In this document: in pieces, positions 48,237 to 64,000 of the stretch | How the letters are laid out: every line of letters begins with the position of its first letter | How positions within the stretch are numbered: the first letter of the stretch is position 1 | Source: Gimesia aquarii | GTDB taxonomy: Bacteria > Planctomycetota > Planctomycetia > Planctomycetales > Planctomycetaceae | DNA length: 64,000 nt | Assembly: GCF_007748175.1 (NCBI RefSeq) | Contig: NZ_CP037422.1 | Span: forward strand, 5,906,334 to 5,970,333 | Reading direction: 5' to 3' | Translations under genes and position numbers: made by a program | The notes under the pieces: generated by a model | Seen by the model: only the letters and a program-made list of their open reading frames with translations | Database searches by the model: none | Told to the model about the DNA's origin: nothing

Positions 48237-48397
48237 ATACATTGTTTAATGTTCATGATTGAATGCTATTTATCGATTAGTTCAACTGTTGAAAGCAGGC
48301 TGGATCAACTGAAATAATTTATTCGCGTGGAGTAACTAGGATCTGCAATTCAAAATAGATCGTAGGTATTTTTTTGAAAATTTACTTTTTCATTGAG

Positions 48398-48577: not shown

Positions 48578-48774
48578 GGTGATTTCTTCACAACAAATAA
48601 CACAAGTAAGTTTTTGGAATTAGGTAGCCATATACGCAATGTGGAAATATTGCATCAACAAACTTTCGGCCAGATCATCTTCAGAAATCCAGTTCGCGTA
48701 GTTTCATAGAGTCAAACAATGGGTAGTACCATGTTGATTTCGATATAGGGTCTTACCTGACTAGAACAAAAAAG

Positions 48775-48984: not shown

Positions 48985-49027
48985 TGGCGGCCACCTCCTT
49001 CGGTTCAGGGATTGGGAGTTTGAGCGA

Positions 49028-49612: not shown

Positions 49613-49684
49613 CAATTTAATAGGAAGAAGAAGAAGAAGTCACTTAAAATTTCGTTTTGAAACCAAAAAAGTGCGATTAGGGAA

Positions 49685-49722
49685 CCGCGCGCGGCCCCGG
49701 GCTCCCCGCAGGAGGACCCGAG
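49685..49722. other. GC-rich island between the gam-like and terminase-like genes
   Basis: A sharply GC-rich stretch (about 90%) in AT-rich surroundings, starting with the perfect palindrome CCGCGCGCGG (49685-49694) and continuing CCCCGGGCTCCCCGCAGGAG. Its place just ahead of a Nu1-like gene suggests a packaging (cos/pac) or processing site, but this is only positional inference. Confidence 0.35.
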
Positions 49723-49728
49723 AAATTT

Positions 49729-50391: not shown

Positions 50392-50911
50392 GTTTGATTC
50401 CTTTCAACAATTTGAAACCAAGATAGATCAACGTCATCAAAGCAATGAAGACAAGAAAAACAGTTCCACTGTTTGATTCTGATTGATCCGCATTCAGCTG
50501 ATCCGAATCGCTTGAATCTTCCGGAACCTCATACAACGGATCCGGTTTCGGTTCGATGATTTCGACGACTTCCGGATCGGGTTCTTGAACCGTAATCGTT
50601 TCAACTTTCTCGATCATGTCGAGTGCATCGTTTGCCAGAATTCCAGCAACGGCCGGCACCGGAGTTTTCTCCAATACCTCATCGACACGGTCCGCAGCTC
50701 CCTGGATCGGTTTCCGGATCTTTTCGCTGGGCCGGACTCGTTTTGAGGGGGGATTGTAAAAGGGGCGATACTGTTGTTTTTGATCGTCTGACTGACAACC
50801 AGGCAGTGTCAATAAAAGGATCAGGAAAGCGAAGATCCAAAGCAAAAGCATCGAAATAGAATCGAAAACTTTGGATTCCGGTCTATTTGGATCCGGGGAA
50901 ATGGCCATCAT
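50369..50911 (-). CDS. Membrane-anchored lipoprotein-like phage protein
   Basis: 180 residues from the ATG at 50911 (GGGAG upstream). The ATGA overlaps the stop of the previous gene, implying translational coupling. Helix 1 (about 19-38) ends in a lipobox-like LPGC. A Pro/Glu/Asp-rich region follows (VQEPDPEVVEIIEPKPDPL), and a second helix (VFLVFIALMTLIYLGFKLL) near the C-terminus is followed by basic residues. Topology suggests a periplasmic spanning segment. Family unknown. Its position between the spanin-like pair and the Gam-like gene suggests a role in lysis, exclusion or envelope contact. Confidence 0.62.
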   Translation of the reverse strand: MMAISPDPNRPESKVFDSISMLLLWIFAFLILLLTLPGCQSDDQKQQYRPFYNPPSKRVRPSEKIRKPIQGAADRVDEVLEKTPVPAVAGILANDALDMIEKVETITVQEPDPEVVEIIEPKPDPLYEVPEDSSDSDQLNADQSESNSGTVFLVFIALMTLIYLGFKLLKGIKREKPHRQ

Positions 50912-51183
50912 TTGTGGTCGCTCCCGTAAGGCCCCTTTTGCCAATAGGGAGCGTACTCATTAAAAAGGGAATCTGAAAAGAGCCAACCGTCATAGGGAGC
51001 TGGATCACCTTGATCGAGCATATCCGGAACCATTTTGTCTGGTACCGCGATCACTTTGGGTTCCGGTTTGCGTTTGAGACGATCCACCAAATTACAACCA
51101 CTAACGATCGTTAGTAATGCGACCACGAGAACGCATACGGTGAAACTGTGATTGAACCGCTTGTTCGTCTCGATTGGTCGCAT
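50908..51183 (-). CDS. Small lipoprotein, o-spanin-like
   Basis: 91 residues. A signal (FTVCVLVVALLTIVSGC) with lipobox IVSGC predicts lipidation at Cys30; the mature part is Pro/Asp-rich. The ATG has AAAGGA nine bases upstream. The gene starts inside the preceding membrane-protein gene in another frame (83-base overlap), the arrangement typical of Rz/Rz1 spanin pairs. I infer the outer-membrane spanin; the sequence alone does not prove it. Confidence 0.6.
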   Translation of the reverse strand: MRPIETNKRFNHSFTVCVLVVALLTIVSGCNLVDRLKRKPEPKVIAVPDKMVPDMLDQGDPAPYDGWLFSDSLFNEYAPYWQKGPYGSDHK

Positions 51184-51298
51184 TGCGTTGAATCCTTTCC
51201 GCTTCTTCCAGCCGTTCGTTTTCGTTGCTATGTTTTTTCTTGGTCCAGAAAAACAACAGCTCCAAAAGGGCTGCGATGATTCTTAATAGACCGCTCAT
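51101..51298 (-). CDS. Small membrane protein, i-spanin-like
   Basis: 65 residues: an N-terminal helix (LLRIIAALLELLFFW), then a charged helical tail (KKKHSNENERLEEAERIQRN). It begins three bases after the stop of the holin-like gene, and its 3' part overlaps the next lipoprotein gene in a different frame. Layout and topology match an inner-membrane spanin, but at 65 residues it is shorter than most. Confidence 0.55.
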   Translation of the reverse strand: MSGLLRIIAALLELLFFWTKKKHSNENERLEEAERIQRNATNRDEQAVQSQFHRMRSRGRITNDR

Positions 51299-51301
51299 TG
51301 A

Positions 51302-51562
51302 TCACTCATTTGAAAACTGACTTGGATCGTGATATCTCTCCTCAGTTGGTTCGATTTCTCCAAACACCATTTGAATGGGAGCACTCTTTTCTAATTTGTG
51401 ACCAATCCCGACAAGGCCGAAGGCGGCCAGTAATAGCTTGATCGCTTCCGCTGTCTGAATTTCACCAAGTAGCATTCCGCTTAGGGAAAAGACAATGGTA
51501 AGAAATGCAGTGAGATACGTTTTCTTACCGTCAAGCGCTTTGAATGGGAGTTTGTCGAGCAT
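51302..51562 (-). CDS. Holin-like protein
   Basis: 86 residues from the ATG at 51562 (AAGGAAG eight bases upstream). Two hydrophobic helices (YLTAFLTIVFSLSGMLLG and AIKLLLAAFGLVGIGHKLE) are separated by a short charged turn, with a polar C-terminal tail. Small two-helix proteins at the head of a lysis cassette are generally holins, which permeabilise the inner membrane. It is followed at three bases by the i-spanin-like gene. Confidence 0.65.
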   Translation of the reverse strand: MLDKLPFKALDGKKTYLTAFLTIVFSLSGMLLGEIQTAEAIKLLLAAFGLVGIGHKLEKSAPIQMVFGEIEPTEERYHDPSQFSNE

Positions 51563-51600
51563 CAATCTGGCTTCCTTGCCATGCTGAGAAATGATATAAA

Positions 51601-51628
51601 AGCGGTATTGCTTCCCTGCGCTACCGCT
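51601..51628. repeat. Inverted repeat in the leader of the phage operon
   Basis: AGCGGTA (51601-51607) and TACCGCT (51622-51628), 14 bases apart, between the predicted minus-strand promoter and the holin-like gene. Possible operator or leader hairpin. Confidence 0.4.
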
Positions 51629-51690
51629 CTGAAATTAACCGTCGCTTCTCCGCTCCATGGTTCGGCTCCGGCTTTTCGATTGCGTTTTAA

Positions 51691-51720
51691 ATTAAGGATG
51701 GTACAACTCGCAAAAGTCAA
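51691..51720 (-). promoter_or_regulatory. Promoter candidate for the phage-like operon
   Basis: On the minus strand TTGACT (51720-51715), 18-base spacer, CTTAAT (51696-51691). It points into the holin-like gene and lies between two divergent genes. Confidence 0.4.
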
Positions 51721-51729
51721 GGGCAGATT

Positions 51730-51927
51730 ATGAAGAGAAACAGGAAGATTGTTCAAGTAGAACTCAATACTGATGAGTGGTTGCCGTTAAGTCGTTATGC
51801 AGCCAAAGAGAAACGATCTATTCGCGGAATCGCGAAGGAGCAATTGATGCCGTTGATCCAGGAAGCAAAACGGAAGTTTCCGCGACAACCCATCAATGCA
51901 TCCCCGCCGATCGATGATGTTCATTAA
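51730..51927 (+). CDS. Ribbon-helix-helix (CopG/Arc-like) candidate
   Basis: 65 residues, ATG at 51730 with AAGGG upstream. A short strand (KIVQVELNTDEW) followed by two helices (LPLSRYAAKEKRS and IRGIAKEQLMPLIQEAKRK) gives the beta-alpha-alpha pattern of ribbon-helix-helix repressors. It is divergent from the phage-like operon, so it may be its regulator. Family assignment rests on pattern only. Confidence 0.6.
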   Translation: MKRNRKIVQVELNTDEWLPLSRYAAKEKRSIRGIAKEQLMPLIQEAKRKFPRQPINASPPIDDVH

Positions 51928-52305
51928 TGGAATAATAATTTCGTCAATAAGACCGTCTTTTATCCTGAGAGGCTCTGGCTATGCACCGTCCCAGTGAAAC
52001 GTTTATTAGAGCTTAAATGAAAAGATATCACTTGATTAAGGCCATCTAACCAATCTTCCTTGCATTAAGATACAAATTAAATTTCACTGATTTCAATGTT
52101 CAATGACTGTAGCGGAAGTATCATTCTCAGATACACTCACGGCTTGAGTACCTGACATATGAGTGTTAAGAAAAAACTTCGTAATCCGTTTGAAAACAGT
52201 TGAAACATGAACATAAATGCTTACAATCATAATGCACAAAATGACATGTTTGGGAGTATTAATTCATCTGAAGATCAGAAACTGAATTATAGACAAAGGA
52301 AAACA
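51928..52305. other. Intergenic, no gene assigned
   Basis: An open frame reaches from 52207 into the next gene, but a strong AAAGGA ribosome site supports the start at 52306 instead. The rest shows no recognisable feature. Confidence 0.35.
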
Positions 52306-53286
52306 ATGAAATTCATATTAGTAATCTTATGCCTTTTCATTCATACGCCTGTCTGTAAAGCAGATACCCCCCCTTTAGTCGCAGAAATTAAGTCGATTTC
52401 GCAATTGCATGGCTCATATCGTAGTAAGTATTCGCATTCTGCTCCACTTCACCTCAGTGGTATTACGACACATAGCGGAAACCTGTTTGTGGTTGGAGAC
52501 AAGTCGAACGATCGATACCTTTACGGTATCGAACACAAGAATGGCCACTGGCACATAGTCAGCAGGCTCTCTCTTAACTACGAAAATGATAAAAGAATGC
52601 CGAGCTTTGAAGGTGTAGCGTGTAAAGGAAATACACTCTTTGTCGTCAATGAGGATCCAACGCACATTTACTCATTTTCATTTAATAGTAAAAGTACTCA
52701 ACTCGATTACAATAATGAAATTAAAATAGACTTCGATCCGACTGGCCTATCAATAAACCACTGGGATAACTCAGGTTTTGAAGGAATCGCGTATGATAAT
52801 CAATCGCGATTGCTGTATTTGGCTAAGGAACGGAACCCTAGATTCATTCTAGCTGTATCTCTTAATCATGCTGTTACTCGTGGCATAGTAGTTTCTCAGT
52901 TCGATGTTCCAGGAACAACCTTTACAGATGACACTCAAAGGCATCTTGGTCGAAAGAAAACGTACTCTGGACTCACGTTTCACAATGGCTTTCTTTATGC
53001 ATTGGAACGACGTGGCTATTCGATAATAAAGATTGATCCCACAAAGAAAATAATTGTATCACGTCTGTCATTTGCCGCACTCAAAGATGGTAAATATGGT
53101 TCTTTATACAAAGAGGGGACACGATATGGCCTAGCCGAGGGTATCGTATTTCACAACGGAAATATTTTAATAGGGATTGACAATAATGGAAAAGATGTTG
53201 ATCGAGATCATAATTTAGTAAAAATGTATAACCTCTCCGGAAACGAACCTTCAATCGTAATACTTGGCAAGCCGGATGAATTCTAA
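52306..53286 (+). CDS. Exported phytase-like / SdiA-regulated-type beta-propeller
   Basis: 326 residues from the ATG at 52306, AAAGGA six bases upstream, giving a typical signal peptide (KFILVILCLFIHTPVCKA). The mature part repeats propeller blades with LSGITTHSGNLFVVGD, FEGVACKGNTLFVVNED, FEGIAYDNQSRLLYLAKER and YSGLTFHNGFLYALER. This is the 'E-G-x-x-x-(D/H)...L.v..(D/E)' pattern of the esterase-like-activity-of-phytase / SdiA-regulated families. No catalytic function is established. It is the first gene of the plus-strand accessory block. Confidence 0.75.
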   Translation: MKFILVILCLFIHTPVCKADTPPLVAEIKSISQLHGSYRSKYSHSAPLHLSGITTHSGNLFVVGDKSNDRYLYGIEHKNGHWHIVSRLSLNYENDKRMPSFEGVACKGNTLFVVNEDPTHIYSFSFNSKSTQLDYNNEIKIDFDPTGLSINHWDNSGFEGIAYDNQSRLLYLAKERNPRFILAVSLNHAVTRGIVVSQFDVPGTTFTDDTQRHLGRKKTYSGLTFHNGFLYALERRGYSIIKIDPTKKIIVSRLSFAALKDGKYGSLYKEGTRYGLAEGIVFHNGNILIGIDNNGKDVDRDHNLVKMYNLSGNEPSIVILGKPDEF

Positions 53287-53677
53287 CGTCGGTTTTTTAA
53301 CAATTACGTAAACCAAATAAAAATTTTACTTTTCTACTCATATAAATTGCATTAGTGGATTTACAATATGAGAATTGAATTAGGTTCCTGAAAGAAGAGC
53401 TTTAACATATCACTTCTTTCTATTCTCGCAACTATCAATTCATCCCACGTTCGCTCCTAGAAAAACAAATCACTTATCGCGTCAATTGACATTTTATATG
53501 TTTTTCCAGGCTTCTCTTGTTTTAATATCAACAGGCAAAATGAGTTTGCCGAAGGGGCCTGATTTTGAGTTGAAGCTGCTACATCACTGCCGACCGGCAA
53601 GTATGGCAGCAATCCATATAGAGCCAATTGATAATATACAGAATCAGATTCTGCCTATTAAAAGTTATGAGTAAATC
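53287..53677. other. Cassette-like spacer, repeats but no gene
   Basis: Contains TTCTCT-GTTTTAATATCAAC (53512-53532), matched with one mismatch at 55824-55844, and CAATTGATAATATACAGAAT (53625-53644), matched at 54550-54569. A 62-codon frame spans these repeats but is not called because it lacks a ribosome site and includes repeat sequence. Confidence 0.45.
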
Positions 53678-54244
53678 ATGATCACGGAATTGCGCCAAAG
53701 ACTGAAAACACTTGCATTGCTTGACGCTATCATTGAGCCCGAGTGGCAGTACCGTTATTTTTCCTATAACTCAAAATGGTCTGATTCTGAAGAGATGGGA
53801 TCCCTTAGAGATGGTTCTGGTGGAGAGTGGTTTTTATGGATATCTGGTCAACTCGCTGGGTACAAGTGCTTAAGTCCTGAAGACGGACTAATGTCGAATA
53901 TTGAGAGCGTGAATAACAAGATACCGAGTAGCTATGATTCGTTTGTTTCCGAACCGGCATTTAGCATGGATAAAGCCACCTGCGTTTGGTACCTAGAAAA
54001 ATCAGAGTGGGTAAAGTTCGGATTACCTATTAAGTGGTTAATCGACCTAGAAACAGTATTGAAATGGTATGCGATTGATTATCACGTCTGGGCAACAGGT
54101 TATTATGAAAGAGAAATAAATATATCTGTTCTCGAGAAAATATTCGAAGGTAGTTTTAGTAGTGATCTTGCTATTAAACTAAATCCCGACATAGAAATGG
54201 ATGGGTTGCAAATAGAGCTAGAAGAAATTGGAATTTACTTATAA
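53678..54244 (+). CDS. Hypothetical cassette protein, immunity-protein-like
   Basis: 188 residues, soluble, acidic. The N-terminal WQYRYFSYNSKW...EEMGSLRDGSGGEWFLWISG block resembles proteins commonly seen in integron cassettes and some SMI1/immunity-type families, but I cannot name one. A Trp/Tyr-rich middle (YLEKSEWVKFGLPIKWLIDL) follows. The stop codon TAA is the first part of an attC-like foldable sequence. No toxin gene is adjacent. The start ATG follows GAGTAAATC with a weak ribosome site. Confidence 0.7.
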   Translation: MITELRQRLKTLALLDAIIEPEWQYRYFSYNSKWSDSEEMGSLRDGSGGEWFLWISGQLAGYKCLSPEDGLMSNIESVNNKIPSSYDSFVSEPAFSMDKATCVWYLEKSEWVKFGLPIKWLIDLETVLKWYAIDYHVWATGYYEREINISVLEKIFEGSFSSDLAIKLNPDIEMDGLQIELEEIGIYL

Positions 54245-54310
54245 CAAGCATATGCAGTCGAACCGTTCCACTCGCTACCCGAGTGAAACGGCCGTTGATG
54301 CGAAGTGTTA
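54242..54310 (+). other. attC-like recombination site candidate 1
   Basis: 69 bases from the gene's own stop codon (TAACA, 54242-54246) to TGTTA (54306-54310). Outer pairs TAACA/TGTTA and GCAT/ATGC enclose a strong hairpin, CCGTT-c-CACTCG / CGAGTG-a-AACGG (54263-54291). Size, stop-codon position and folding fit integron attC sites, although the 3' core GTTACTC departs from the GTTRRRY consensus. Confidence 0.5.
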
Positions 54311-54316
54311 CTCTTG

Positions 54317-54390
54317 CCCTCGTTCGATATACTCAAATGCGTTTTTAAATGACTGTTTTAAAAGACACCCTCTAAAATAATGACTGAGTA
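54317..54390 (+). repeat. Cassette leader repeat, copy A
   Basis: Starts CCCTCGTTCGATA and ends in the block AAAAGACACCCTCTAAAATA followed by rTGACYGrGTA. Copy B is at 55408-55490 (25 bases identical, 54355-54379 = 55455-55479). Each copy follows an attC-like site. Confidence 0.75.
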
Positions 54391-54549
54391 TCTCTTATTT
54401 ACCAGACCATTTTCTGGGACTTTAGATTTCAATTTCGGCAAAGGAACGTCACTCTGCCCCTCGTCTCGATCATGGTCGGATTGCCAGAAGATCAACATTC
54501 GCTGTCATTCCAGTCTTCCCTGAATAAACCTGAAGCGGATACATACCAT

Positions 54550-54604
54550 CAATTGATAATAGACAGAATTCTTGATAGATATAGACAGAATCAAATTCTG
54601 TCTA
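54550..54604 (+). repeat. TAGACAGAAT palindromic repeat cluster
   Basis: CAATTGATAATAGACAGAAT (54550-54569; copy at 53625-53644 with one mismatch), then a perfect hairpin TAGACAGAAT-CAA-ATTCTGTCTA (54582-54604), then a GTTAGGC at 54611-54617. Both copies of the first unit lie just upstream of a gene start. Confidence 0.65.
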
Positions 54605-54639
54605 TCAATAGTTAGGCCTCAAATATACGAGTAGCAAAT

Positions 54640-55320
54640 ATGTCGGATAATGGTGAGCCACTTATCGAAGCTCTTGAAGAAGCAGACGCGGGTGTCGCTC
54701 CATCACCATTCGGTGAGTTGTCTGTCAAGATCCCCGGCGCACCGGCATCCATTCAATCCAAAAAAGCCCAGCGAAACGCCTACATCGCACAAATCAAAAC
54801 CGAGCTGTCAAAGTTTCAGTTCATTTTAACGGGACAGATAATTCTCGAGATCACATGGAACGTTCCAGCGAAGAGTCGCTACGAGACCGACGCCAAAGCA
54901 GACATTGACAACTGTCTGAAACCAATCATTGACGCGTTCACTGGGCCTGATGGAATCATGATCGACGATTGCCAGCTTAAGGGGCTTTATATCTCTTGGA
55001 CCCACATCAATTCAGGAGATGAGTATTTGCATTTCCAATTCAAGTTTGATTCGGACCACTATTGTGAGCGAGATGATTTGGTATTCATTCGCCTCGAAAA
55101 GGGCCTGCGTTGTCCAGTGAACACCAATTGGCCCAAAGAGCTGAAAACTATTTGGGTTAAAGCGATCCAAGCAGGTGAAGACCTCAAAGCGATTCTTGAG
55201 AATGAAAATGTATCTTACTTGACGCTTGCCTCGATGACTGGTGGAGCACAACCGTTTCACGCAACGAGAACAGTTGGCTTTAGAGACTTGTCACCTGAAG
55301 AGTTTGCTGGCGAAACATAA
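54640..55320 (+). CDS. RusA-like Holliday junction resolvase with extra C-terminus
   Basis: 226 residues. The RusA fold spans about 25-130: a start strand VKIPGAPASIQSKKAQRN, VPAKSRYETDAKADIDNCLKPIIDAFTGPDGIMIDDCQ. The catalytic aspartates are recognisable (Asp88/Asp90 of DIDN, Asp98, and Asp109-Asp110 of DDCQ). RusA cleaves four-way DNA junctions and is usually phage-borne, about 120 residues long. Here an N-terminal acidic tail (1-24) and a C-terminal ~95-residue extension of unknown function are added. It lies between the two leader repeats, so it looks like a complete mobile cassette. Its stop TAA begins the second attC-like site. Confidence 0.8.
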   Translation: MSDNGEPLIEALEEADAGVAPSPFGELSVKIPGAPASIQSKKAQRNAYIAQIKTELSKFQFILTGQIILEITWNVPAKSRYETDAKADIDNCLKPIIDAFTGPDGIMIDDCQLKGLYISWTHINSGDEYLHFQFKFDSDHYCERDDLVFIRLEKGLRCPVNTNWPKELKTIWVKAIQAGEDLKAILENENVSYLTLASMTGGAQPFHATRTVGFRDLSPEEFAGET

Positions 55321-55381
55321 CAACAGGTCGAACTGGAGAGACCGTTCACGCGAAATATGAAATCACATTCGTTGGCTGTTA
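55318..55381 (+). other. attC-like recombination site candidate 2
   Basis: 64 bases from the stop codon of the RusA-like gene (TAACA, 55318-55322) to TGTTA (55377-55381), with a small internal stem GAAC-T-GG / CC-GTTC. Same outer pentamers and placement as candidate 1, though the inner sequence differs, as usual for attC sites. Confidence 0.45.
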
Positions 55382-55407
55382 CCCGATCAACCTAAAATTT
55401 ACTTTTA

Positions 55408-55490
55408 CCCTCGTTCGATAAAATCAAACGTTTTCTCAATTGCGTTTTTAAACCGTTTTAAAAGACACCCTCTAAAATAGTGACCGGGTA
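55408..55490 (+). repeat. Cassette leader repeat, copy B
   Basis: Imperfect second copy of the leader at 54317-54390, with an extra 14-base insertion after CCCTCGTTCGATA. It leads into GGGTAA hairpins. Confidence 0.75.
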
Positions 55491-55534
55491 ACTCATATTA
55501 CCCAGACAAGAGGTCGGGTAAATATTATTTCCCG
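55486..55534 (+). repeat. Two adjacent GGGTAA hairpins
   Basis: GGGTAA-ctcata-TTACCC (55486-55503) and CGGG-tAA...TT-cCCG (55515-55534). A third related stem forms the terminator at 55770-55808. All flank the 66-residue gene. Confidence 0.55.
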
Positions 55535-55560
55535 GAGACTTGTTATGATGGGGCACTGAA

Positions 55561-55761
55561 ATGATTCTGCCTGTTTTTATCAATGGGGTTAAATTTCCTT
55601 ATGGCGAATCTTGTGAAATCGACTTTGGGCTAAAGCATCAAGAGATCAAGACGCATGTCATTCAAGCGAGCCCAATGATTAGAATTGATGGTCTGATCTT
55701 GGACAATTATGATTTGATTTCTATTATTCTTCAAAAAATGAATCAAGCGGGTCGTGATTGA
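55561..55761 (+). CDS. Small hypothetical cassette protein
   Basis: 66 residues, ATG at 55561 preceded by a GGGG stretch. The sequence (MILPVFINGVKFPYGESCEI..., ending LQKMNQAGRD) shows no domain that I recognise. It has balanced composition with several hydrophobic strands, so a small folded protein is likely. It sits between GGGTAA hairpins with its own terminator downstream, which supports an independent transcription unit. Confidence 0.55.
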   Translation: MILPVFINGVKFPYGESCEIDFGLKHQEIKTHVIQASPMIRIDGLILDNYDLISIILQKMNQAGRD

Positions 55762-55769
55762 ATGAAATT

Positions 55770-55810
55770 AAAAGTGTCCGGGTAACAACAATTTTACCGG
55801 ACACTTTTTT
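55770..55810 (+). terminator. Terminator after the small cassette gene
   Basis: AAAAGTGTCCGG (55770-55781) and CCGGACACTTTT (55797-55808), perfect 12-bp stem followed by TT. The strand-symmetric A/U ends would allow bidirectional function. Confidence 0.85.
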
Positions 55811-56060
55811 CTATTTTTCAGAATTCTCTCGTTTTAATATCAACTGTCATCGAGGACTTTCTTTGGAAACAGTCTTTTAGTGGAAGTTGTGTTTGATCGG
55901 AGCTGCGAAATTTTTCAGATTAGCAGATCAAGAACGTTGGCTAAAAAACTCGATAATGTCTCTTCTTTTTGCTTCGATGTCTGTAGAATAATCAAATGAA
56001 GTGTATTGTTTGTTCTACACTGATTTCTAATAACTGTTGTGATTATAGACAGGGAACAAA

Positions 56061-57251
56061 ATGGCAGATATTGTCCAATATCTCGTGCTTCGCCGCAGAA
56101 AAATTGCATCACCTACTTCGATTGAAGAGATTTACGGTCATCCGTATACCGTTAATCCCCGAGCGTCGGAAGATATGATAGTTGAGCAGATAAATGCGCC
56201 ACTTGTAGAGCTCAACGAAATTCGGAGTGAGGAAGACTGCCTCGGTATCGCACCGGTCATCCCCTTAAGGCATATTGCCCCGATGAATCGAACTCAGCGC
56301 CCTTCAAATGGCGACACATCCATTTTGCCATGGGGGCTACGGGCAGTCGGTGTGGAGCGAACGGAATTGACGGGTCATGGTGTGACTGTTGCCGTACTTG
56401 ATACCGGCATCGAGAAAGAGCACCCAGCGTTCTCCCACATTTTTTCGGGAATCGAATGTGAAAACTTCACCGGCGAAGAGGCTGTAGACTACGATGGTCA
56501 TGGCACTCATGTCGCGGGGACAATCTTTGGTGAGAGTATCAACGGCGTCCGAATTGGCGTTGCACCTGGAATCAAAAAAGCGCTAATCGGCAAAATCATT
56601 GGAAGGCAAGGAACGACATCGGTGCAACTTCAACGCGGGCTTCAATGGGCCATTGAAAACGGTGCCAATATTGTTTCCATGTCTCTTGGCTTTGATTTCC
56701 CTCGCTACACCAAGAAACTGTGTGAGGAACTGCCGCGCGATGTGGCTTTCTCAAGAGCCCTACGAGCTTATCAGCAGAATTTGGATTTCTTCTCTACTTA
56801 TGCCTCTCATGCGACTATTTCTGCCACTCAGCCATTGCTACTGGTTGCAGCCGCTGGCAACGAAACTAGGCGCGACGAAAGATCGGATTATGCAATAGAC
56901 AAATCCCTGCCAGCGGCAGCTCCAGGATTTCTGAGCGTCGGTGCCCTCATGAATTCCGGTACGAAGCTTGAAGTGGCGTCGTTTTCTAACACCGGAGTCA
57001 GAGTTTCTGCGCCGGGTGTTGATATTCTATCCGCGATCCCTGGAGGCGGCGATTCAGAGATGAGCGGCACTAGTATGGCAACACCGCATGTGTCCGGTGT
57101 TGCCGCGCTATGGCTGGAATATCTGACGAAGAAGCAGGGGATCGTTTCCAGCGGTTTACTTGCGGATAAGGTGGTTGGAAGCGCCACCGATCAGTTTTTG
57201 GAAGGTGCTCCAGAAAGCGATGTAGGTGCCGGGATTGTGCAAACACCATAG
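56061..57251 (+). CDS. Signal-less S8 subtilisin-like serine protease
   Basis: 396 residues, ATG at 56061 with AGGGA seven bases upstream. No signal peptide, so the protein is expected to be cytoplasmic. Residues 1-90 form a prodomain-like stretch. The catalytic domain keeps the full triad: Asp114 (VAVLDTGI), His147 (DYDGHGTHVAG) and Ser338 (SGTSMATPHVSG), plus the oxyanion Asn267 (AAAGNE). There is no C-terminal extra domain. It is convergent with the WD40 membrane protein gene (33-base gap), so three genes of the locus (S8, WD40, CHAT) face one another. Cytosolic subtilases next to CHAT and repeat proteins occur in predicted bacterial conflict systems; the target is unknown. Confidence 0.88.
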   Translation: MADIVQYLVLRRRKIASPTSIEEIYGHPYTVNPRASEDMIVEQINAPLVELNEIRSEEDCLGIAPVIPLRHIAPMNRTQRPSNGDTSILPWGLRAVGVERTELTGHGVTVAVLDTGIEKEHPAFSHIFSGIECENFTGEEAVDYDGHGTHVAGTIFGESINGVRIGVAPGIKKALIGKIIGRQGTTSVQLQRGLQWAIENGANIVSMSLGFDFPRYTKKLCEELPRDVAFSRALRAYQQNLDFFSTYASHATISATQPLLLVAAAGNETRRDERSDYAIDKSLPAAAPGFLSVGALMNSGTKLEVASFSNTGVRVSAPGVDILSAIPGGGDSEMSGTSMATPHVSGVAALWLEYLTKKQGIVSSGLLADKVVGSATDQFLEGAPESDVGAGIVQTP

Positions 57252-57284
57252 AGGGTCCCGGCCAGTGGCAACACAAGCGTTGCT

Positions 57285-60200
57285 TTATTTCTGTTGAAAT
57301 ATGGAACGGTTGATTCGACACTTTTCAAACAGTACTAAACCCCTTTCATCTAGTCCGACACAAATTCCACTCACACGGACTCGTTGGCCGTCTTTGATTT
57401 GAACATATTGTCCGCCAGCTTCGATGAAATCATTCAGGAATCGATTCTCTTTAATGAGTTCAAAATCCTGATATCCGAACTCACAGTGTACCATGTCTTT
57501 TCCAGTCGTAGAGTCGCTGATTCGAAAAACGGGATATCGGCTTGTCATAAAGCCTTCAATCATAAAATTTCTTCCAACATATTCTTCTTCCGCCCATGTT
57601 GGCCGAGTCTCAAAATCGTTCCATAAAAGATCAATGGGAACGGGATTTCCTGGAATCCCTTCAAAAGTGTTCGGAAGCGTACCGCGACCGCTAGTGGTGC
57701 CCTCTGGAGAAATCTGCATCAAAGCACTAATGGCCATCGAAGTTGGATACTCCAGCAATGTCAACCCAAAGCTAAACAAAACGATCGGAAGACCAATAAT
57801 AACCGTAGCAATCATGTGCGAAGCCCCAAAGCTCATTCCGGAAAACTTATTAAGATCTGTCGAGAATGATTGGTGCCCAAGGTTGTTAAGTACATGGACT
57901 CTAATGACTATGCAGGTCGCGATCACAATTCCGATAGACCATCCAAAAAGTGATATAAAAAGGATCCAGAAAAGTTCGTTAAGCAAAAAGTGGAGCACCC
58001 AATTAGTCCAGCTTGTGGAAACCACATAGCATAAAACGGTCGCGGGAAGGATAAGCCAACGGATTCCTCCCAAGATGCCGAGTTCTCCATAGATTCGTAC
58101 AATTTCCGCATGCCACCTGCTGATCATTGAGATGATAGAAGCGAGTAACACAAAAAACATGCCCGTAATACCACAAATATGCCATCCGGATGACATGCCT
58201 TCACGCCACGCACGTGTCATCACGATACTGAAATTATCAAAATCGGTGGGGTCTGAGCTTTCATAGAAAATCGCGGCAGACAGCATTTGAAATGATCCGC
58301 CAACACCCCAGCCAGCCATACCAAACAGGCCATAAGCGCCAACTGTTGAGAACAAGACAAGTACCGCGCGAACAATAAATCCGTTGCGGTTGCGTTCATA
58401 GACGCTGTATTGGGCGGATTCTAAATGTCTTTCAATCAATTCCGTAAATACGTTTCCTTTCTTTGGTTCACCAGCAGGTTCACAGGGACTCTTATTATAC
58501 CTGGAAAGCATATCGCCATTACGGTGGACTAAATATGGTGTAGGACTTTCTTGAATTGAGTGGCTCTGGATTCCAAACAATTTATTTTCTGCTGCCGCAA
58601 CTGCGAGTGTCGCGATCCTGCTGTCACATGAGAGCTCGCGTGTGAATTCCGACTTAAGATCCCAGCAATGAGTTCCTTCACTGGTGCAGATCAGCACTTC
58701 ATCAGATTCTGCGTCATACTCTAGAGCGATCACAGCAGATATCTCATCCGGGCCATCATTACTAGTGTGAAATGATGCTTGAACGACCAGTGTCAAGTTT
58801 TCAGAAGTCACCGAGCTGATGCCATGAGTACCGGCAATGACAAGTAGGTCAAATGAAGGTACCAGCGTCATCAACACAGAGTTACCAACTTCGAAAAGAG
58901 CTTCACATGACATCGAATTGGTGACGACATCTATACGGCATACCCTTCCATTATCAAAGCATACAAAACAGGTGTTGCGGTCGTGAATATCAAACGCAAT
59001 ACTTGTTACGATGCCTGGCCCCAAACTCAGATGACTGATAGATTTCCATTTCGTAGCATCCCAGACAAGAATAGTACCGGACGCAGTACCTGTTGCCAGA
59101 AGCGAACCACAACTGCTCCAACCAATTGCGGTTACTGATGTTGCGTGGCCGTATAGGACTGCGATATTCGCATTGTCCTCCCAGCACCAGACGCAAGCCG
59201 TCGCATCACAGGATGCCGAAGCAAAAAAGGCTCCTGAAGGTGCAAACGAGATCGCTGTGATCCTCCACGAATGCTTCCAAATTGGAGCCAGTTCCGCTGC
59301 CTGAGTCTGGATGTAGCAACTCTCACCGTCCGTGAAGACACATTTCTCCCCAAACCTATCGACAGCAATGACGGGATTCCAGTTTTTTTTCACCGATGAG
59401 AGTGACTGGAAGCGATTTTGTGGCTCTGATTTCCATCGGCCGTACGATTGAAAGACAATTAGACCGGGAATGATTGAACCGGTGAAACACGACAGCAATA
59501 GAAACAATGCGTCGCCACCCGGCATAAAACAAGTAAAATGTAAGAGTGCCTCTGGATCTTCATCATAGAAAGCAATCACATCAAGATAATAAGCTCCTAA
59601 CACAACTAGCAAGGCAATCAGAAGATACTTCACAGCTCGTTGTTTGAACAACAGAATAACTGCAACTCCTAAGATGATTCCAAAGCAGGTCGCAACAAGC
59701 GAGTTCCATGTAGGTGGAAGAATGGATTCAACAACAACGAGAGTTACTCCGGTTGCTCCCGAACACAACGCTGCTCCCCAAACCGCTAATATCACTGAAT
59801 GCCGATCAGTTATGCTGTCAAAAACGTGCTTCATAGGCGTAATAGGAATCGCGATTCGAAAGAAAAAGATCGCAAAAAGTGCACCGATGACGGCAGCCCA
59901 GAAACCGCACCACGTTGCATTGGTAAATCCTTCTCGCCATCGGTTTTGTTCGTCAATTGCCCAAAGATACCAGAACAGCTGTCGCAAAAGGACAACCCCC
60001 AGCAACACAGCAAATGCGGCGTTAAACATACTGAATTTTTGTTTGTAAGGTGCGATTTGGTCTGACGAAACAGGTACCCCCAGAGCAACGCTCCAAGTTG
60101 ATAGGATCCAATCTGATAGATCTACGTCAAGACTGTTGTCTTTGAGTTGTGCTATGCACCGGGACGAGATCAGTTCGTATTTTCTTGGATCATCAAGACG

Positions 60201-60602
60201 CAGTAAATCAGCCACCACCCCGCTGTCAATCGCTCTGACTAGCAACGATATCAGAAAGCCCCTTTCCGGACATGCCTGCATAAGACGACTCCTGATTTCA
60301 TCGGAGTTAAGAGCGATGTCAGGAGATTTTTCGATGATTAATTTGAGACTTTGACGCAAATTGCAGCCAACCGCCGCCGCAGCTTCATTGAGAGCTTCCA
60401 AAGCATTGGTTGTGTCAATTGCCGGGTCAGCCTTCTGAAGGTCACCCAGCCATTCTGGAACACAATCCTCATATGGAAGTTCTGCCGGAAGCGCCTTCAT
60501 CTGCTCAACGATACCTAGCCGTTTAATAACAGCTTGAACTCGTAGCCGATTGGCCTGAGTCGTATAGGTTGAATCGGGTAAAGCCTTCTCCGGCTTCGTC
60601 AT
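57285..60602 (-). CDS. Membrane WD40 protein with helical N-terminus and OB-fold-like C-terminus
   Basis: 1105 residues from the ATG at 60602; the frame stays open to a TTG at 60662 inside the CHAT gene. Order (numbering from 60602): an alpha-helical N-terminus about 15-170 (possibly two death-like/effector-associated helical bundles); about six to seven membrane helices 185-385; WD40-like blades about 415-680 (FAPSGAFFASASCDATACVW, VTAIGWSSCGSLLATGTASGTILVWD); a second membrane block about 745-970; and a C-terminal domain about 1015-1105 (YVGRNFMIEGFMTSRYP... IKDGQRVRVSGICVGL... LFEKCRI) resembling tRNA_anti-like OB folds. It is co-transcribed with the TPR-CHAT gene, 28 bases after its stop. 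Probably a membrane sensor or scaffold; ligand unknown. Confidence 0.85.
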   Translation of the reverse strand: MTKPEKALPDSTYTTQANRLRVQAVIKRLGIVEQMKALPAELPYEDCVPEWLGDLQKADPAIDTTNALEALNEAAAAVGCNLRQSLKLIIEKSPDIALNSDEIRSRLMQACPERGFLISLLVRAIDSGVVADLLRLDDPRKYELISSRCIAQLKDNSLDVDLSDWILSTWSVALGVPVSSDQIAPYKQKFSMFNAAFAVLLGVVLLRQLFWYLWAIDEQNRWREGFTNATWCGFWAAVIGALFAIFFFRIAIPITPMKHVFDSITDRHSVILAVWGAALCSGATGVTLVVVESILPPTWNSLVATCFGIILGVAVILLFKQRAVKYLLIALLVVLGAYYLDVIAFYDEDPEALLHFTCFMPGGDALFLLLSCFTGSIIPGLIVFQSYGRWKSEPQNRFQSLSSVKKNWNPVIAVDRFGEKCVFTDGESCYIQTQAAELAPIWKHSWRITAISFAPSGAFFASASCDATACVWCWEDNANIAVLYGHATSVTAIGWSSCGSLLATGTASGTILVWDATKWKSISHLSLGPGIVTSIAFDIHDRNTCFVCFDNGRVCRIDVVTNSMSCEALFEVGNSVLMTLVPSFDLLVIAGTHGISSVTSENLTLVVQASFHTSNDGPDEISAVIALEYDAESDEVLICTSEGTHCWDLKSEFTRELSCDSRIATLAVAAAENKLFGIQSHSIQESPTPYLVHRNGDMLSRYNKSPCEPAGEPKKGNVFTELIERHLESAQYSVYERNRNGFIVRAVLVLFSTVGAYGLFGMAGWGVGGSFQMLSAAIFYESSDPTDFDNFSIVMTRAWREGMSSGWHICGITGMFFVLLASIISMISRWHAEIVRIYGELGILGGIRWLILPATVLCYVVSTSWTNWVLHFLLNELFWILFISLFGWSIGIVIATCIVIRVHVLNNLGHQSFSTDLNKFSGMSFGASHMIATVIIGLPIVLFSFGLTLLEYPTSMAISALMQISPEGTTSGRGTLPNTFEGIPGNPVPIDLLWNDFETRPTWAEEEYVGRNFMIEGFMTSRYPVFRISDSTTGKDMVHCEFGYQDFELIKENRFLNDFIEAGGQYVQIKDGQRVRVSGICVGLDERGLVLFEKCRINRSIFQQK

Positions 60603-60630
60603 TGAATTATTCTTCAGTTGTCTCGGTTTA

Positions 60631-63600
60631 TCATGTTGCAAAAGAACGTCCTCCGTCTCCAATCAACATCAGGCCACTCCAAAAATACGGATGATCGAAA
60701 AAAGGTACGTCCCAGTCTGCATCCGGTCCCTTGTAGTTTTTGACTTCGAGTACTGCAGCTCTGAAACTTGCCCCTACTGCGAGGCCCTCCTCACGCAGGC
60801 ACATGTAAAATTTTTCAAAGAAGATCTGGCCCGGCTTTGAGTAGAGAAGCCAGCGTGCGCCTATAAAAGCTGGCACACCAAGCGACAGAATCGCTGCTGG
60901 AAATCCACTGATATCAGTTCTGGTATAGTCGCCCGGACGGCTCATTTCCGCTGAAAAGCAGACATTCATTGTCAGCAGTTGACAGCGTGGAAACCGCTTG
61001 CCGTTCTTCACGAGGCGAAACAGCGTATCACTGGAAAATTGTTCTCCAGGAAACAACCCGTCCACACCGGCGAACTCAAGCGAGGGAGCATTGGCCCGGC
61101 GGGAACTGTGGGAACTTCCGTGTAACATCAGATGAATCACGTCTGCCTGAGGCGCGAGATCAACGAAATCTCTTGCCGATGCGCGAGCCCCCATGAGAAG
61201 ATGAGATTCTTCGCTGAAGTGACCAAGGATCCGATCCCGGACGAACTTACCATCACCAGATGCAGCGAGGTCGGATCCTATCGGCTGGGCAACGCCAAGC
61301 AATACAGGTGTTGCCGTCTGAGACTCTCTTTGGCGGGAGGCTGCAAGGACTTCGATGCTTGGCGCGAGAACAACTTCATACTCCTCGATGATGTGTCTTT
61401 TCGTGCGGATGTTGATCAGAGCTGGGAATGGGATCTGGTTTAAGTTCTTATCAGGAATTATCACCAGTCGATCAACTCCAGAATTCATCAATAATTCCAT
61501 GACTTGGGACGGCAGGAAATAACGCGACAACTGCATTAGTGAAATGATAAAGGCTTTTTTAGAATCGAAGATCGATGTAAGGCTGCCGCCTGAGGCTTTC
61601 AGGCCTGAAGTCACCTCACTCAATAGACATTCGAACTCTTCCAGTGCACATTCAATTCCTTTTGTCTCAAGACGTATCAGATGGTGATCTCCTTCACTAA
61701 AGATTACTACCAGCAGCAATCTGTCACCGGCATCTGTTCTGTCATGGAACCAGGTAAAGTGCAGGATTGCTTCGCGATGGCCTGGTACATAGGCAACGTT
61801 AGACTGTGATGAATTTATTTTTGATGTATAACTGTTGTCTCTGCTGATCCATTCGCAGAGTGTTTGGGCTCGGCGCAGTTCTGATAGACGAACAACTTCA
61901 CTGACGTCGTTTTCCGCTTCAGCAAGCCGAATGGAATTGTCAAAAGCAATTTGTGAAACCTGAAGCAGACGGTTGCGAGAAGGTGTTCCGACAGCTTCTG
62001 ATTGAATAGGTGGCAGTGACATCCGCTCTTGGAAATAACAATCCACTGCGCGTTTGTAATAAGAGCGAGCAGCAGCGTAATTCTTTTCTTCAATTTGAAA
62101 CTCATAGCACCACCCGAGTCTCTCAAGAACAACTCGCTGAAGATCCATCCTTTCGGTTCGGAGGATCAGTTGAGCAGCTTCTTCAAGTAAGCTGATTGCC
62201 TTCGCCGTATCAGCACGGTCTCGTTCTTCTTTGCCGATTAAAAGGTTAGCTTTTGCCAGCAGTATACGGGCCTGACCTGTCACGTTTTCTCCATCCCTGG
62301 CAAGAGTCATTGCTCTGTCGAGATGCTCAGAATCGACATCGGATGCCTTCCTCAATAAACTTGATTCGACGAGACGCAATAGTGCTTCCAGTTCGTAGTC
62401 GGGCAACTCAAGTTCGCGGCCGAGACTCCGGGCATCCTGAAACGTTGCATCTGCCTCCTTGAAGAGACCTTGCTCAAGTTCGGCATTGCCACGAATTAAC
62501 AGAGACTCAGTCTCAGCAACATGTAGGCCTAGAGAAGAAAAAATAGCGATGGCCTGGGCAATCGTCTGCATTGCATCAGCGTATATCCCACATCTTGACA
62601 ATGCTTCTGCGTAGTCTTTTAGGAGATGACCGGTGCCAATCTTCTGCTCACTTCTGTTAGCAACTTCTATGGCTGAATTAAAGCAGTCGCGGACATCGTC
62701 ACCATTTCGCAACTGCCCGCTAATCACGCACAGTCGACGGTAGGAAAGCAGCACAGCTTCCTCGTCACCTGAATGTTTATGTCGTTCGAGAGCCTCCCGC
62801 TCAACAATGAGCCAGTGTCTTAAATGTCCCAACCGTGCAAATGCAGCCAAGACGAAGTCCATACTTACACCGACAATCCCATCGTCAGGAAACTTAGAAA
62901 TAATCTCTCGCGCCGAATCCAAATCACCACGTCGCAGATACAGACGGTACAGTTCTTCCAACGCAAGTTTATCTCCAAGTTCTGATGCGCAAGAAAATGC
63001 TTCTGCGGATTCAGTAATGCGCCCTTGAAGCAAATATTGTTCACCGAGTTGGCGTTGAGCGGCTGAGACAGAATCATTCCCGAGCCAAATCGACTCACTA
63101 CTGATAGCTTGCTTTGCATATTCCTCGGCTTCACCGAACTCCCCGCGTGCAGCATGTATTTCAGAAAGGAACAGTAGGACTTTTGTAAGTTCCGCCTTTG
63201 GACGAGACGTCCAGGACGTCGCACGTGACAAATCGTGCAGCGCACCATCTATATCTCCACGCCGATATCGCAGCTGTCCTAAAGAATAGAGCGAACGGAC
63301 TGCAGCTGCATCGTTACCAGCTAAGCAAGCAGCATCGAATGCCCGGCCAAAGGCTTCTGTCGCATTATCAAAGAAACCAGCCCGGGTTGCACGTTCAGCA
63401 AAGGACAACGCGGTAGTCAACTGCAGTCGTGTATCACCCACGGCCCGCGAAGCTGTGTCGTTCAGCATTGCCACGATTGCCAGCTTGCGATCTGACAAAT
63501 CCCAGTCGAGAAAACCGTCATGTTTGGTATCGTTGTTTCTGCCAGTCAACACAACGTCAATCGCCCTAATTCTTTCCTGAACAAGCAATGACCTGAGTGG

Positions 63601-63822
63601 TTCGGTCTTCAGAGCCTGCTGGGCATCGGAAATTGAGAGTATATTGGATTGTTGGTTTCCCGGAACATCCCCAACCACCTGATGCGCTAGCAACAAAACA
63701 GGATGATTGTACAACATTGTTTTTTGTTGCAGTACAGAGAGAATAATTGGGCGTACCAGGAACTCCGGAATACGAAGAGAAAATACAAGGACGCGACTAA
63801 GCGATTTGAATAGCAAACGCAA
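60631..63822 (-). CDS. TPR-CHAT protein (caspase-like protease candidate)
   Basis: 1063 residues from a TTG at 63822 with AAGGTG five bases upstream; the next ATG (63717) has no ribosome site. Residues about 100-660 are helical TPR-like repeats (for example FGRAFDAACLAGNDAAAVRSL, ALHDLSRATSW). Residues about 700-1060 are a CHAT domain: strands VDRLVIIPDKNLNQIPFPAL, EVVLAPSIEVL and PVLLGVAQP, then the catalytic dyad His901 (HLMLHGSS) and Cys955 (LLTMNVCFSAE), and a late GVPAFIGARW...FFEKFY segment. CHAT proteins are caspase/separase-type cysteine proteases; TPR-CHAT partners are known, for example, in type III-E CRISPR (Craspase). No CRISPR array or cas gene is in the window. It forms an operon with the WD40 membrane gene. 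Confidence 0.9.
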   Translation of the reverse strand: MRLLFKSLSRVLVFSLRIPEFLVRPIILSVLQQKTMLYNHPVLLLAHQVVGDVPGNQQSNILSISDAQQALKTEPLRSLLVQERIRAIDVVLTGRNNDTKHDGFLDWDLSDRKLAIVAMLNDTASRAVGDTRLQLTTALSFAERATRAGFFDNATEAFGRAFDAACLAGNDAAAVRSLYSLGQLRYRRGDIDGALHDLSRATSWTSRPKAELTKVLLFLSEIHAARGEFGEAEEYAKQAISSESIWLGNDSVSAAQRQLGEQYLLQGRITESAEAFSCASELGDKLALEELYRLYLRRGDLDSAREIISKFPDDGIVGVSMDFVLAAFARLGHLRHWLIVEREALERHKHSGDEEAVLLSYRRLCVISGQLRNGDDVRDCFNSAIEVANRSEQKIGTGHLLKDYAEALSRCGIYADAMQTIAQAIAIFSSLGLHVAETESLLIRGNAELEQGLFKEADATFQDARSLGRELELPDYELEALLRLVESSLLRKASDVDSEHLDRAMTLARDGENVTGQARILLAKANLLIGKEERDRADTAKAISLLEEAAQLILRTERMDLQRVVLERLGWCYEFQIEEKNYAAARSYYKRAVDCYFQERMSLPPIQSEAVGTPSRNRLLQVSQIAFDNSIRLAEAENDVSEVVRLSELRRAQTLCEWISRDNSYTSKINSSQSNVAYVPGHREAILHFTWFHDRTDAGDRLLLVVIFSEGDHHLIRLETKGIECALEEFECLLSEVTSGLKASGGSLTSIFDSKKAFIISLMQLSRYFLPSQVMELLMNSGVDRLVIIPDKNLNQIPFPALINIRTKRHIIEEYEVVLAPSIEVLAASRQRESQTATPVLLGVAQPIGSDLAASGDGKFVRDRILGHFSEESHLLMGARASARDFVDLAPQADVIHLMLHGSSHSSRRANAPSLEFAGVDGLFPGEQFSSDTLFRLVKNGKRFPRCQLLTMNVCFSAEMSRPGDYTRTDISGFPAAILSLGVPAFIGARWLLYSKPGQIFFEKFYMCLREEGLAVGASFRAAVLEVKNYKGPDADWDVPFFDHPYFWSGLMLIGDGGRSFAT

Positions 63823-63921
63823 TTGGCACCTTTATTGTTTTGAGACATGACAGTTAGGATGCATTAATCTATCTGACCACACAGAACTGTGCTCAAAAAT
63901 ACACACTGTCAATCAAAACAC

Positions 63922-63950
63922 AAGATACAGAACTAATGCTCACTTGTCAA
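63922..63950 (-). promoter_or_regulatory. Promoter candidate for the CHAT-WD40 operon
   Basis: On the minus strand TTGACA (63950-63945), 17-base spacer, TATCTT (63927-63922), about 100 bases before the TTG start. A second TTGACA (63912-63907) has no good -10 partner. Confidence 0.5.
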
Positions 63951-64000
63951 AACTTAGATTAGTTCAACAAAATTAGACAATCAAATATCCTTCCAGCAAT

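What the first reader, a model, noticed from the sequence alone, without database searches (positions are those of the whole stretch)
56061..63822. S8 subtilisin / membrane WD40 / TPR-CHAT locus: candidate new protease-based conflict system
Seen: a cytoplasmic subtilisin with an intact triad (Asp114, His147, Ser338) convergent with an operon of a TPR-CHAT protein with an intact His901/Cys955 dyad and a polytopic WD40 protein with a helical N-terminus and an OB-like C-terminus. Known: CHAT, subtilase/trypsin, WD40, TPR and small helical adaptor domains recur in predicted NLR-like bacterial conflict systems, and TPR-CHAT acts as a regulated protease in Craspase. Inference: the WD40/TPR parts sense a phage or stress signal at the membrane and trigger a CHAT-to-S8 (or S8-to-CHAT) proteolytic cascade. 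The exact gene set, with a membrane-embedded WD40 partner instead of a STAND NTPase, does not match a system that I can name.
Basis: partly seen in the sequence, partly recalled or inferred. Interest (0 to 1): 0.88.

Follow-up and report, generated by a model that had tools for sequence, protein, structure and literature searches.

The report
Island-borne CHAT and subtilisin protease module
A mobile DNA island in a bacterial chromosome carries a caspase-like protease, a membrane-anchored WD40 protein and a subtilisin zymogen, with likely immune genes elsewhere on the island; relatives of the subtilisin sit beside caspase-like proteases in some other bacteria, which hints at a variant of two-protease bacterial defence.

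Summary
The three genes are real and intact: S8 subtilisin (56061-57251, +), WD40/polytopic membrane protein (57285-60662, -) and TPR-CHAT protease (60631-63822, -), with the triad and dyad named. They lie in a 43 kb tyrosine-integrase island at tRNA-Phe (48237 to about 91230, past the window end), absent from a close relative. The island also carries TIR-TM, DUF4062, pentapeptide-TIR and DNA methyltransferase genes. The exact three-gene set was found in no other genome searched. The S8 belongs to a clade with an I9-like pro-domain and an invariant triad; 6 of 16 clade loci read carry CHAT, in 4 of them 22-60 bp away on the same strand. In 3 of 11 genomes CHAT and S8 are linked (P=2.9e-5; 0.0018 without this genome), but the contrast with other S8 loci (1 of 12) is not significant (P=0.09). 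Best reading: a mobile conflict module pairing a membrane WD40/TPR-CHAT sensor protease with a subtilisin zymogen. Defence function and cascade direction are inferred. S8 with trypsin and nuclease in a predicted proteolytic cascade is already in print (PMC7159879); S8 with CHAT I did not find in print. Not Craspase (no RAMP gene), not IetAS. New variant of a known kind.

The parts
56061..57251 (+). S8 subtilisin, 396 aa, no hydrophobic signal segment; I9-like pro-domain (about 5-71), linker (pLDDT under 50 at 76-87), catalytic domain (from about 91) with D114/H147/N267/S338
57285..60662 (-). WD40 polytopic membrane protein, up to 1125 aa: helical N-terminus, 6 hydrophobic segments (215-404), WD40 region (Pfam matches within 444-694), 5 hydrophobic segments (762-969), OB-like tail 1008-1125; likely start ATG 60602
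60631..63822 (-). TPR-CHAT protease, 1063 aa, dyad H901/C955; upstream gene of the same apparent operon; the only CHAT match of the genome at E<=0.001
57267..57284 (+). terminator-like hairpin between the convergent S8 and WD40 genes (such sites are not above chance in the region: 11 found, 8.3 expected, sd 3.5)
48165..48236 (.). left attachment repeat: 72 bp identical to 91159-91230, which covers the 3' part of tRNA-Phe
48237..64000 (.). part of the integrative island that lies in the window; the island continues to about 91230 in extrapolated coordinates
49729..50391 (-). Mu Gam-like gene (phage-type cargo of the island)
54640..55320 (+). RusA-like gene of the island

Best explanation
This is a mobile, island-borne conflict (probably anti-phage) module built from two proteases. 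The membrane-anchored WD40 protein and the TPR-CHAT protease form a sensor/initiator pair; the S8 is a cytoplasmic zymogen kept quiet by its I9-like pro-domain. On a signal at the membrane the CHAT protease is released or activated and cuts the S8 linker or pro-domain (or the S8, once free, cuts CHAT or the membrane protein), and runaway proteolysis stops the infected cell. Shown: gene intactness, zymogen-like S8 architecture, insertion as an island, immune-type genes on the same island, S8-CHAT pairing in several other loci. Inferred: physical partnership here, the order of the cascade, the trigger and the cell-death outcome.
For: Island with integrase at tRNA-Phe, absent from the relative with the most similar flanks. 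Cargo: TIR-TM (PADLOC 4.7e-60), DUF4062 (3.3e-30), pentapeptide-TIR, DNA methyltransferase; DUF4062 proteins are reported as TIR-like antiphage NADases (PMC13174449, outline and abstract). S8 matches the PADLOC model 'subtilase' at 6.2e-26. The S8 clade is one side of a 100/100 branch if one misread row is ignored. CHAT in 6 of 16 clade loci, in 4 of them 22-60 bp from the S8 on the same strand. CHAT matches are linked to the S8 in 3 of 11 genomes: P=2.9e-5, or 0.0018 without this genome. The S8 profile aligns with pro-subtilisin E over 5-211, pro-domain included, and 9 of the 10 best PDB matches of the model are pro-forms.
Against: The S8 gene is convergent with, not part of, the CHAT-WD40 operon. 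Ten of 16 clade loci have no CHAT and 8 of 11 genomes show no linkage. Against 12 other S8 loci (1 with CHAT) the difference is not significant: one-sided Fisher P=0.09, or 0.14 without the window. Some of those other S8 loci also have TIR or trypsin-type neighbours by annotation. Six clade loci (L051-L054, L056, L158) show no recognised immune partner. No substrate, gasdermin or nuclease effector was recognised in the island ORFs scanned, save a PIN-like match below cut-off. No expression or phage data exist here.
Confidence: 0.48

Rival explanations
1. The CHAT-WD40 operon and the S8 gene are two separate cargo items of one defence island that happen to lie tail to tail; each acts alone or with other partners.
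For: Convergent orientation with a terminator-like hairpin between; the island holds other unrelated-looking cargo; 10 of 16 S8 clade loci lack CHAT, and the contrast with other S8 loci is not significant.
Against: The single CHAT match of a 7.2 Mb genome lies 3.4 kb from the single clade member; S8 and CHAT are 22-60 bp apart on the same strand in four other loci.
Confidence: 0.32
2. The S8 processes a peptide or protein (maturation or export), as PatA/PatG, QhpE or mycosin-type subtilisins do, and the locus is not immune.
For: NCBIfam gives sub-threshold hits to mycosin, PatA and QhpE; relatives L051 and L053 lie beside what look by eye like injection-system or DUF4157-type genes.
Against: Those hits are far below cut-off (best 113.8 of 278.75 bits); no maturation enzyme was recognised among the neighbours scanned; partners in part of the other loci are CHAT, caspase, TIR or trypsin.
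Confidence: 0.1
3. A WD40/TPR-CHAT stress-signalling pair with no immune role, like generic TPR-CHAT proteins of other bacteria.
For: TPR-CHAT or CHAT proteins at 20-25% identity occur on cyanobacterial and Caballeronia plasmids (22 records, 20 of them listed).
Against: Carried on an island absent from the relative G002 and not found in 391 other phylum genomes at a strict threshold.
Confidence: 0.1

Closest known systems
System 3 of PMC7159879: peptidases coupled to NucA-type nucleases
   Same: S8 and trypsin peptidases (some with EAD1) in conflict operons, mostly of alphaproteobacteria, proposed to act through a proteolytic cascade (section 32 read); S8 clade loci L050 (EAD1-trypsin) and L159 (trypsin-nuclease fusions) look like this system
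   Different: Core there is trypsin plus NucA nuclease; section 32 names no CHAT. Here no trypsin or NucA was recognised at the locus; CHAT and a WD40-membrane protein take that place
Craspase TPR-CHAT (type III-E CRISPR)
   Same: TPR fused to CHAT with a His/Cys dyad; autoinhibited protease switched on by a partner (PMC9729208, passages)
   Different: No RAMP-family match in the whole genome; partner is a WD40 membrane protein; an S8 protease is present
Other NLR-like and ternary conflict systems (PMC7159879, PMC10907252)
   Same: Same domain vocabulary: a beta-propeller subsystem with a membrane-spanning component (passages); an S8 peptidase with WD40 repeats beside a NACHT gene; a CHAT-TIR protein (passages)
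   Different: No STAND, MoxR or other NTPase among the 23 island ORFs scanned with Pfam; WD40, CHAT and S8 are on three separate proteins
Fungal gasdermin receptors with S8 or CHAT protease fused to WD40 or TPR
   Same: S8 and CHAT serve the same kind of system, with WD40/TPR repeats (PMC12881547, passages)
   Different: In the passages seen they are alternatives; here both occur together, and no gasdermin was recognised
IetAS (S8 anti-phage peptidase)
   Same: S8 protease in defence; weak match to IetS (28.3 bits PADLOC; 24.9 bits NCBIfam)
   Different: Far below the NCBIfam cut-off of 900 bits; no adjacent ATPase recognised
Thoeris-like TIR plus caspase loci
   Same: S8 clade members L046, L047 and L157 lie beside caspase and TIR or TIR-like genes
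   Different: No caspase gene recognised at the window locus; the TIR genes of this island lie 17-20 kb from the CHAT gene

Membership tests
Peptidase S8 (subtilase) | Pfam match over cut-off with Asp/His/Ser triad | tested here: met
   135.5 bits against 21.8; triad in 9 of 9 and 11 of 11 rows
CHAT protease | Pfam CHAT over cut-off with His/Cys dyad | tested here: met
   97.2 bits against 24; H901/C955, conserved in 8 of 8 aligned domains
Craspase (type III-E) | gRAMP/Cas7-11 or other RAMP protein in the genome | tested here: not met
   PF03787: no match in the genome at E<=0.01; rings in 4 of 14 control genomes
Craspase (type III-E) | TPR-CHAT fusion | tested here: met
   but no Craspase chain of the PDB matched by sequence, only designed repeat proteins
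IetAS | IetS equivalog score | tested here: not met
   24.9 bits against 900
IetAS | adjacent IetA ATPase | tested here: not met
   scanned neighbours are WD40-membrane, CHAT, RusA-like, PIN-like (below cut-off) and unassigned ORFs
System 3 of PMC7159879 | trypsin-like peptidase and NucA nuclease | tested here: not met
   neither among 23 island ORFs scanned with Pfam
NLR-like/ternary conflict systems | STAND, MoxR or other NTPase switch | tested here: not met
   none among 23 island ORFs scanned with Pfam; some smaller island ORFs were not scanned with Pfam
NLR-like/ternary conflict systems | effector-associated (Death-like) adaptor domain | tested here: inconclusive
   N-terminus of the WD40 protein is modelled as helices with no Pfam or PDB match
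Thoeris with caspase effector | TIR and caspase genes side by side | tested here: not met
   no caspase among the 23 scanned ORFs; present at L157, L046, L047
Bacterial gasdermin operon | gasdermin gene beside the protease | tested here: inconclusive
   no such match among 23 island ORFs given to PADLOC; whether that library holds gasdermin models was not checked
tRNA-integrated genomic island | integrase, tRNA-end direct repeat, empty site in a relative | tested here: met

The most novel reading that the evidence does not exclude
This S8 clade is the shared part of a family of protease-relay immune systems in which a CHAT or caspase initiator activates a subtilisin zymogen, with interchangeable sensors (a membrane WD40 protein here, a propeller-TM-CHAT receptor in L055 and probably L047, TIR or NACHT-like proteins elsewhere).
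Probability: 0.33. Interest if true: 0.72.

Novelty: new variant of a known kind. Interest (0 to 1): 0.48.

Why it matters
If the pairing is functional, bacteria would run a caspase-family to subtilisin relay, a counterpart of protease relays in cell death, and would join in one system the two protease types that fungi use as alternatives to control gasdermins. The S8 clade gives a sequence handle to collect such loci and makes the idea testable with purified proteins and active-site mutants.

Tried and rejected
Whole WD40 protein as a query: swamped by unrelated WD40 repeats, 99 of 99 genomes hit; replaced by its non-WD40 parts, which hit only this genome (1 of 294; 1 of 199). The whole protein and the helical part gave no plasmid match. 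Structure of the helical N-terminus: too weak for a fold assignment, no PDB match better than E=1. Phage records: no TPR-CHAT match; 40 records with S8 matches, the 10 listed 30-34% identical. A half-remembered motif for the helical region of the WD40 protein matched only copies of this same protein among the loci held and is not used. Gasdermin partner: none recognised. The one genome-contig scan gave a single remote S8 (28%).

Dropped rows: G148 (weak S8 match over residues 88-211) was not followed; plasmid hits H24-H26 show the same query range, identity and E-value as H23, were taken as copies and not opened; only 16 of the 360 plasmid records with an S8 match were opened; L065 was misread (contains stops) in the tree and is left out of the reading of that tree. 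The local CHAT model was trained on domains from the positive loci, so those six match by construction; all six also match Pfam CHAT. The 10 kb limit for linkage was set after the loci had been seen. Changed on re-check: the one subtilisin passage of PMC7159879 had not been shown; reading it lowered interest and confidence slightly, as did the Fisher tests.
Full report
Observation. The three ORFs exist as described. The S8 protein (396 aa) matches Peptidase_S8 at 3e-39, the membrane protein (1125 aa from its first possible start) matches WD40 at 1.2e-11, and the third (1063 aa) matches TPR_12 and CHAT, the latter at 1.6e-27. Triad D114/H147/S338 and dyad H901/C955 are present. CHAT and then WD40 are on the minus strand; the likely WD40 start, ATG 60602, lies 28 nt after the CHAT stop. 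The S8 gene converges on it with a 33 bp gap.

Island. The window is bases 5906334-5970333 of a single 7.22 Mb contig. I read on past the window. A tRNA-Phe gene lies at extrapolated window coordinates 91184-91256 and a tyrosine integrase at 88838-89869 (Phage_integrase 9.7e-13). A 72 bp stretch covering the tRNA 3' end is repeated exactly at 48165-48236. In G002, the relative with the most similar flanks, the two flanking genes, 99% and 97% identical, lie 1.5 kb apart instead of 44.4 kb, and the flanks align up to the repeat. So a 43 kb element was inserted here, or lost there. It carries Mu Gam-like, RusA-like and Nu1-like (below cut-off) genes and a DNA methyltransferase, a repeated Nu1-like block at 92% identity, an IS110-type transposase, a DnaJ-domain protein, a DUF4062 protein (3.3e-30), a pentapeptide-TIR protein and a TIR-TM protein (PADLOC 4.7e-60). 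DUF4062 proteins are reported to be TIR-like NADases with antiphage activity (PMC13174449, outline and abstract).

Relatives of each gene. The TPR-CHAT gene was found in 1 of 392 phylum genomes, this one, at E<=1e-15; few candidates per genome were scored, so more distant relatives may be missed. Plasmids hold 22 records with CHAT or TPR-CHAT proteins, the 20 listed being 20-25% identical. The N-terminal and first membrane part of the WD40 protein was found in 1 of 294 genomes, this one, and its helical part in 1 of 199. The exact three-gene set was therefore not found in any other genome searched. The S8 differs: relatives at 45-51% identity occur in 6 other genomes of 294 (a seventh match, G148, is weak), 5 of 397 class genomes besides this one pass E<=1e-60, one of them shared, and plasmid records of Alphaproteobacteria and one actinobacterial record of 11.9 Mb carry them.

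S8 neighbourhoods. I read 16 clade loci including the window. Sphingomonas (L046): an ORF similar to a TIR gene of L047, caspase, S8, CHAT 33 bp after it, TIR. Agrobacterium (L047): CHAT 33 bp before S8, then TIR, with caspase, TIR and a second annotated CHAT gene further on. Sinorhizobium (L050): CHAT 22 bp before S8, then an EAD1-trypsin protein. G324 (L055): S8, then two CHAT genes about 2 kb and more away on the same strand, the first with Reg_prop repeats and a hydrophobic segment, 32% identical to the L047 CHAT protein. G079 (L160): S8 between two CHAT genes on the same strand. G023 (L157): ThsB-type TIR, caspase, S8. L049 and L159 have trypsin-like genes; L048 has a gene that looks like a NACHT-type membrane NTPase (by eye). 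L051-L054, L056 and L158 show no such partner; L051 and L053 look injection-system-like by eye. CHAT is thus present in 6 of 16 clade loci, against 1 of 12 other S8 loci and 0 of 80 viral S8 loci (the model was trained on the six, which Pfam also recognises). The difference from the 12 other S8 loci is not significant: one-sided Fisher P=0.09, and 0.14 if the window is left out. Flanks also differ in length among loci, and two contigs (L055, L056) end near the S8. In the tree the 16 clade members and 11 other S8 rows fall on the two sides of a 100/100 branch; forks inside the clade are mostly unresolved, and CHAT-linked members do not form one group in the tree drawn (ignoring the misread L065 row).

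Linkage test. CHAT matches were counted in the 11 genomes found to carry a clade member: 1, 1, 1, 3, 1, 1, 2, 10, 0, 1, 0 for G000, G023, G039, G079, G078, G464, G324, G111, G259, G245, G216 (E<=0.001; those of G464 and G245 and one of G111 are below Pfam's cut-off). In G000 the one match, in G324 both and in G079 two of three lie within 10 kb of the S8. With random placement 0.07 linked genomes are expected; P(>=3 of 11)=2.9e-5, and P(>=2 of 10)=0.0018 when this genome, chosen for its linkage, is left out. The 10 kb limit was set after seeing the loci. Eight of the 11 genomes show no linkage. Three plasmid loci (L046, L047, L050) add CHAT-S8 neighbours outside this test.

Structure. A model of the S8 from 11 family rows (mean pLDDT 78.7, pTM 0.84; the other four models scored 55-66) has a small mixed domain at 5-71, partly low in confidence (16-36), a low-confidence stretch at 76-87 and the catalytic domain from 91. 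The family profile aligns with pro-subtilisin E over positions 5-211. Nine of the ten best PDB matches are pro-forms of subtilisin E or Tk-subtilisin, rank 2 being a mature subtilisin; TM-scores by query length are 0.60-0.64 for the pro-forms in the top ten with a large rmsd of about 8 A, so the placing of the pro-domain is rough. No hydrophobic signal segment was found. So the S8 looks like a cytoplasmic zymogen. The WD40 protein has 11 hydrophobic segments outside its helical and WD40 regions; charge counts of the short loops favour a cytoplasmic N-terminus and propeller, while the side of the tail is unclear.

Mechanism. Most likely, in my judgement, the WD40 membrane protein senses or scaffolds, the TPR-CHAT protease is the initiator, and the S8 zymogen is the executioner or amplifier, activated by removal of its pro-domain. 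Subtilisin pro-domains inhibit until degraded (recalled). TPR-CHAT in Craspase is an autoinhibited protease switched on by its partner complex (PMC9729208, passages), and paired proteases activate effectors by cleavage in Hachiman, AVAST and Canu systems (PMC12799240, passages). In fungi, receptors with S8 or CHAT domains and WD40 or TPR repeats control gasdermins (PMC12881547, passages). Every step beyond gene content, zymogen shape and linkage is inference.

What is known. PMC7159879 describes, in alphaproteobacteria above all, trypsin-NucA systems that may include an S8 domain and EAD1-trypsins and proposes a proteolytic cascade (section 32 read); S8 clade loci L050 and L159 resemble it. 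The same paper describes propeller-containing ternary systems with a membrane-spanning component (passages). PMC10907252 (passages) reports an S8 peptidase with WD40 repeats beside a NACHT gene and a CHAT-TIR protein. PMC8195603 (passages) does not hold the word subtilisin in its main text. A search for 'S8 family', 'CHAT domain' and 'defense' returned one paper, again PMC10907252; searches listed none that shows an S8-CHAT gene pair in the titles and abstract beginnings seen. The library lacks most subscription papers, so this is weak evidence of novelty. The paper on TIR-activated caspase-like immunity (Rousset et al. 2025) was seen only as a reference entry. The genome has no RAMP match, which speaks against Craspase.

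Verdict. It is a new variant of known protease-based conflict systems; the S8-CHAT linkage is the part worth following, and it needs a larger survey with a limit fixed beforehand.

Noticed in passing
window 49010-49759 and extrapolated 69014-69758: A block with a Nu1-like/HTH gene is present twice in the island at 92% identity, about 20 kb apart, on either side of the RusA, S8, WD40 and CHAT genes, which suggests two related elements joined or a duplicated segment.
   Followed up: partly
window 47634-47992 and extrapolated 90446-90804: The ORF just outside the left repeat has a similar copy (85%) inside the right end of the island, so the element seems to carry its own version of the sequence behind its target site.
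   Followed up: partly
L060-L069 (all but L068): In the other S8 group an ORF of about 75-103 aa follows the S8 gene directly in 9 of 10 annotated loci; an unnamed S8 plus small protein pair.
   Followed up: no
L055 6439-9960 and L047 3365-6838: CHAT proteins with a hydrophobic segment before the CHAT domain and, in L055, Reg_prop propeller repeats; 32% identical to each other across phyla: they look like one-chain transmembrane CHAT receptors.
   Followed up: partly
L159 13-1518 and 6233-8416: Two trypsin-nuclease proteins (Endonuclease_NS and Endonuclease_1) lie upstream of and near an S8 clade member, like System 3 of PMC7159879.
   Followed up: partly
L058 1183-2253, 7481-8305, 8564-10108: DUF4062, TIR-TM and pentapeptide-TIR genes in the right part of the same island, outside the window.
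   Followed up: partly
S8 at 56061-57251 and TIR-TM at L058 7481-8305: Their best PADLOC models have neighbouring numbers, PDLC03014 'subtilase' and PDLC03016 'TIR-TM'; whether these belong to one PADLOC system was not checked.
   Followed up: no
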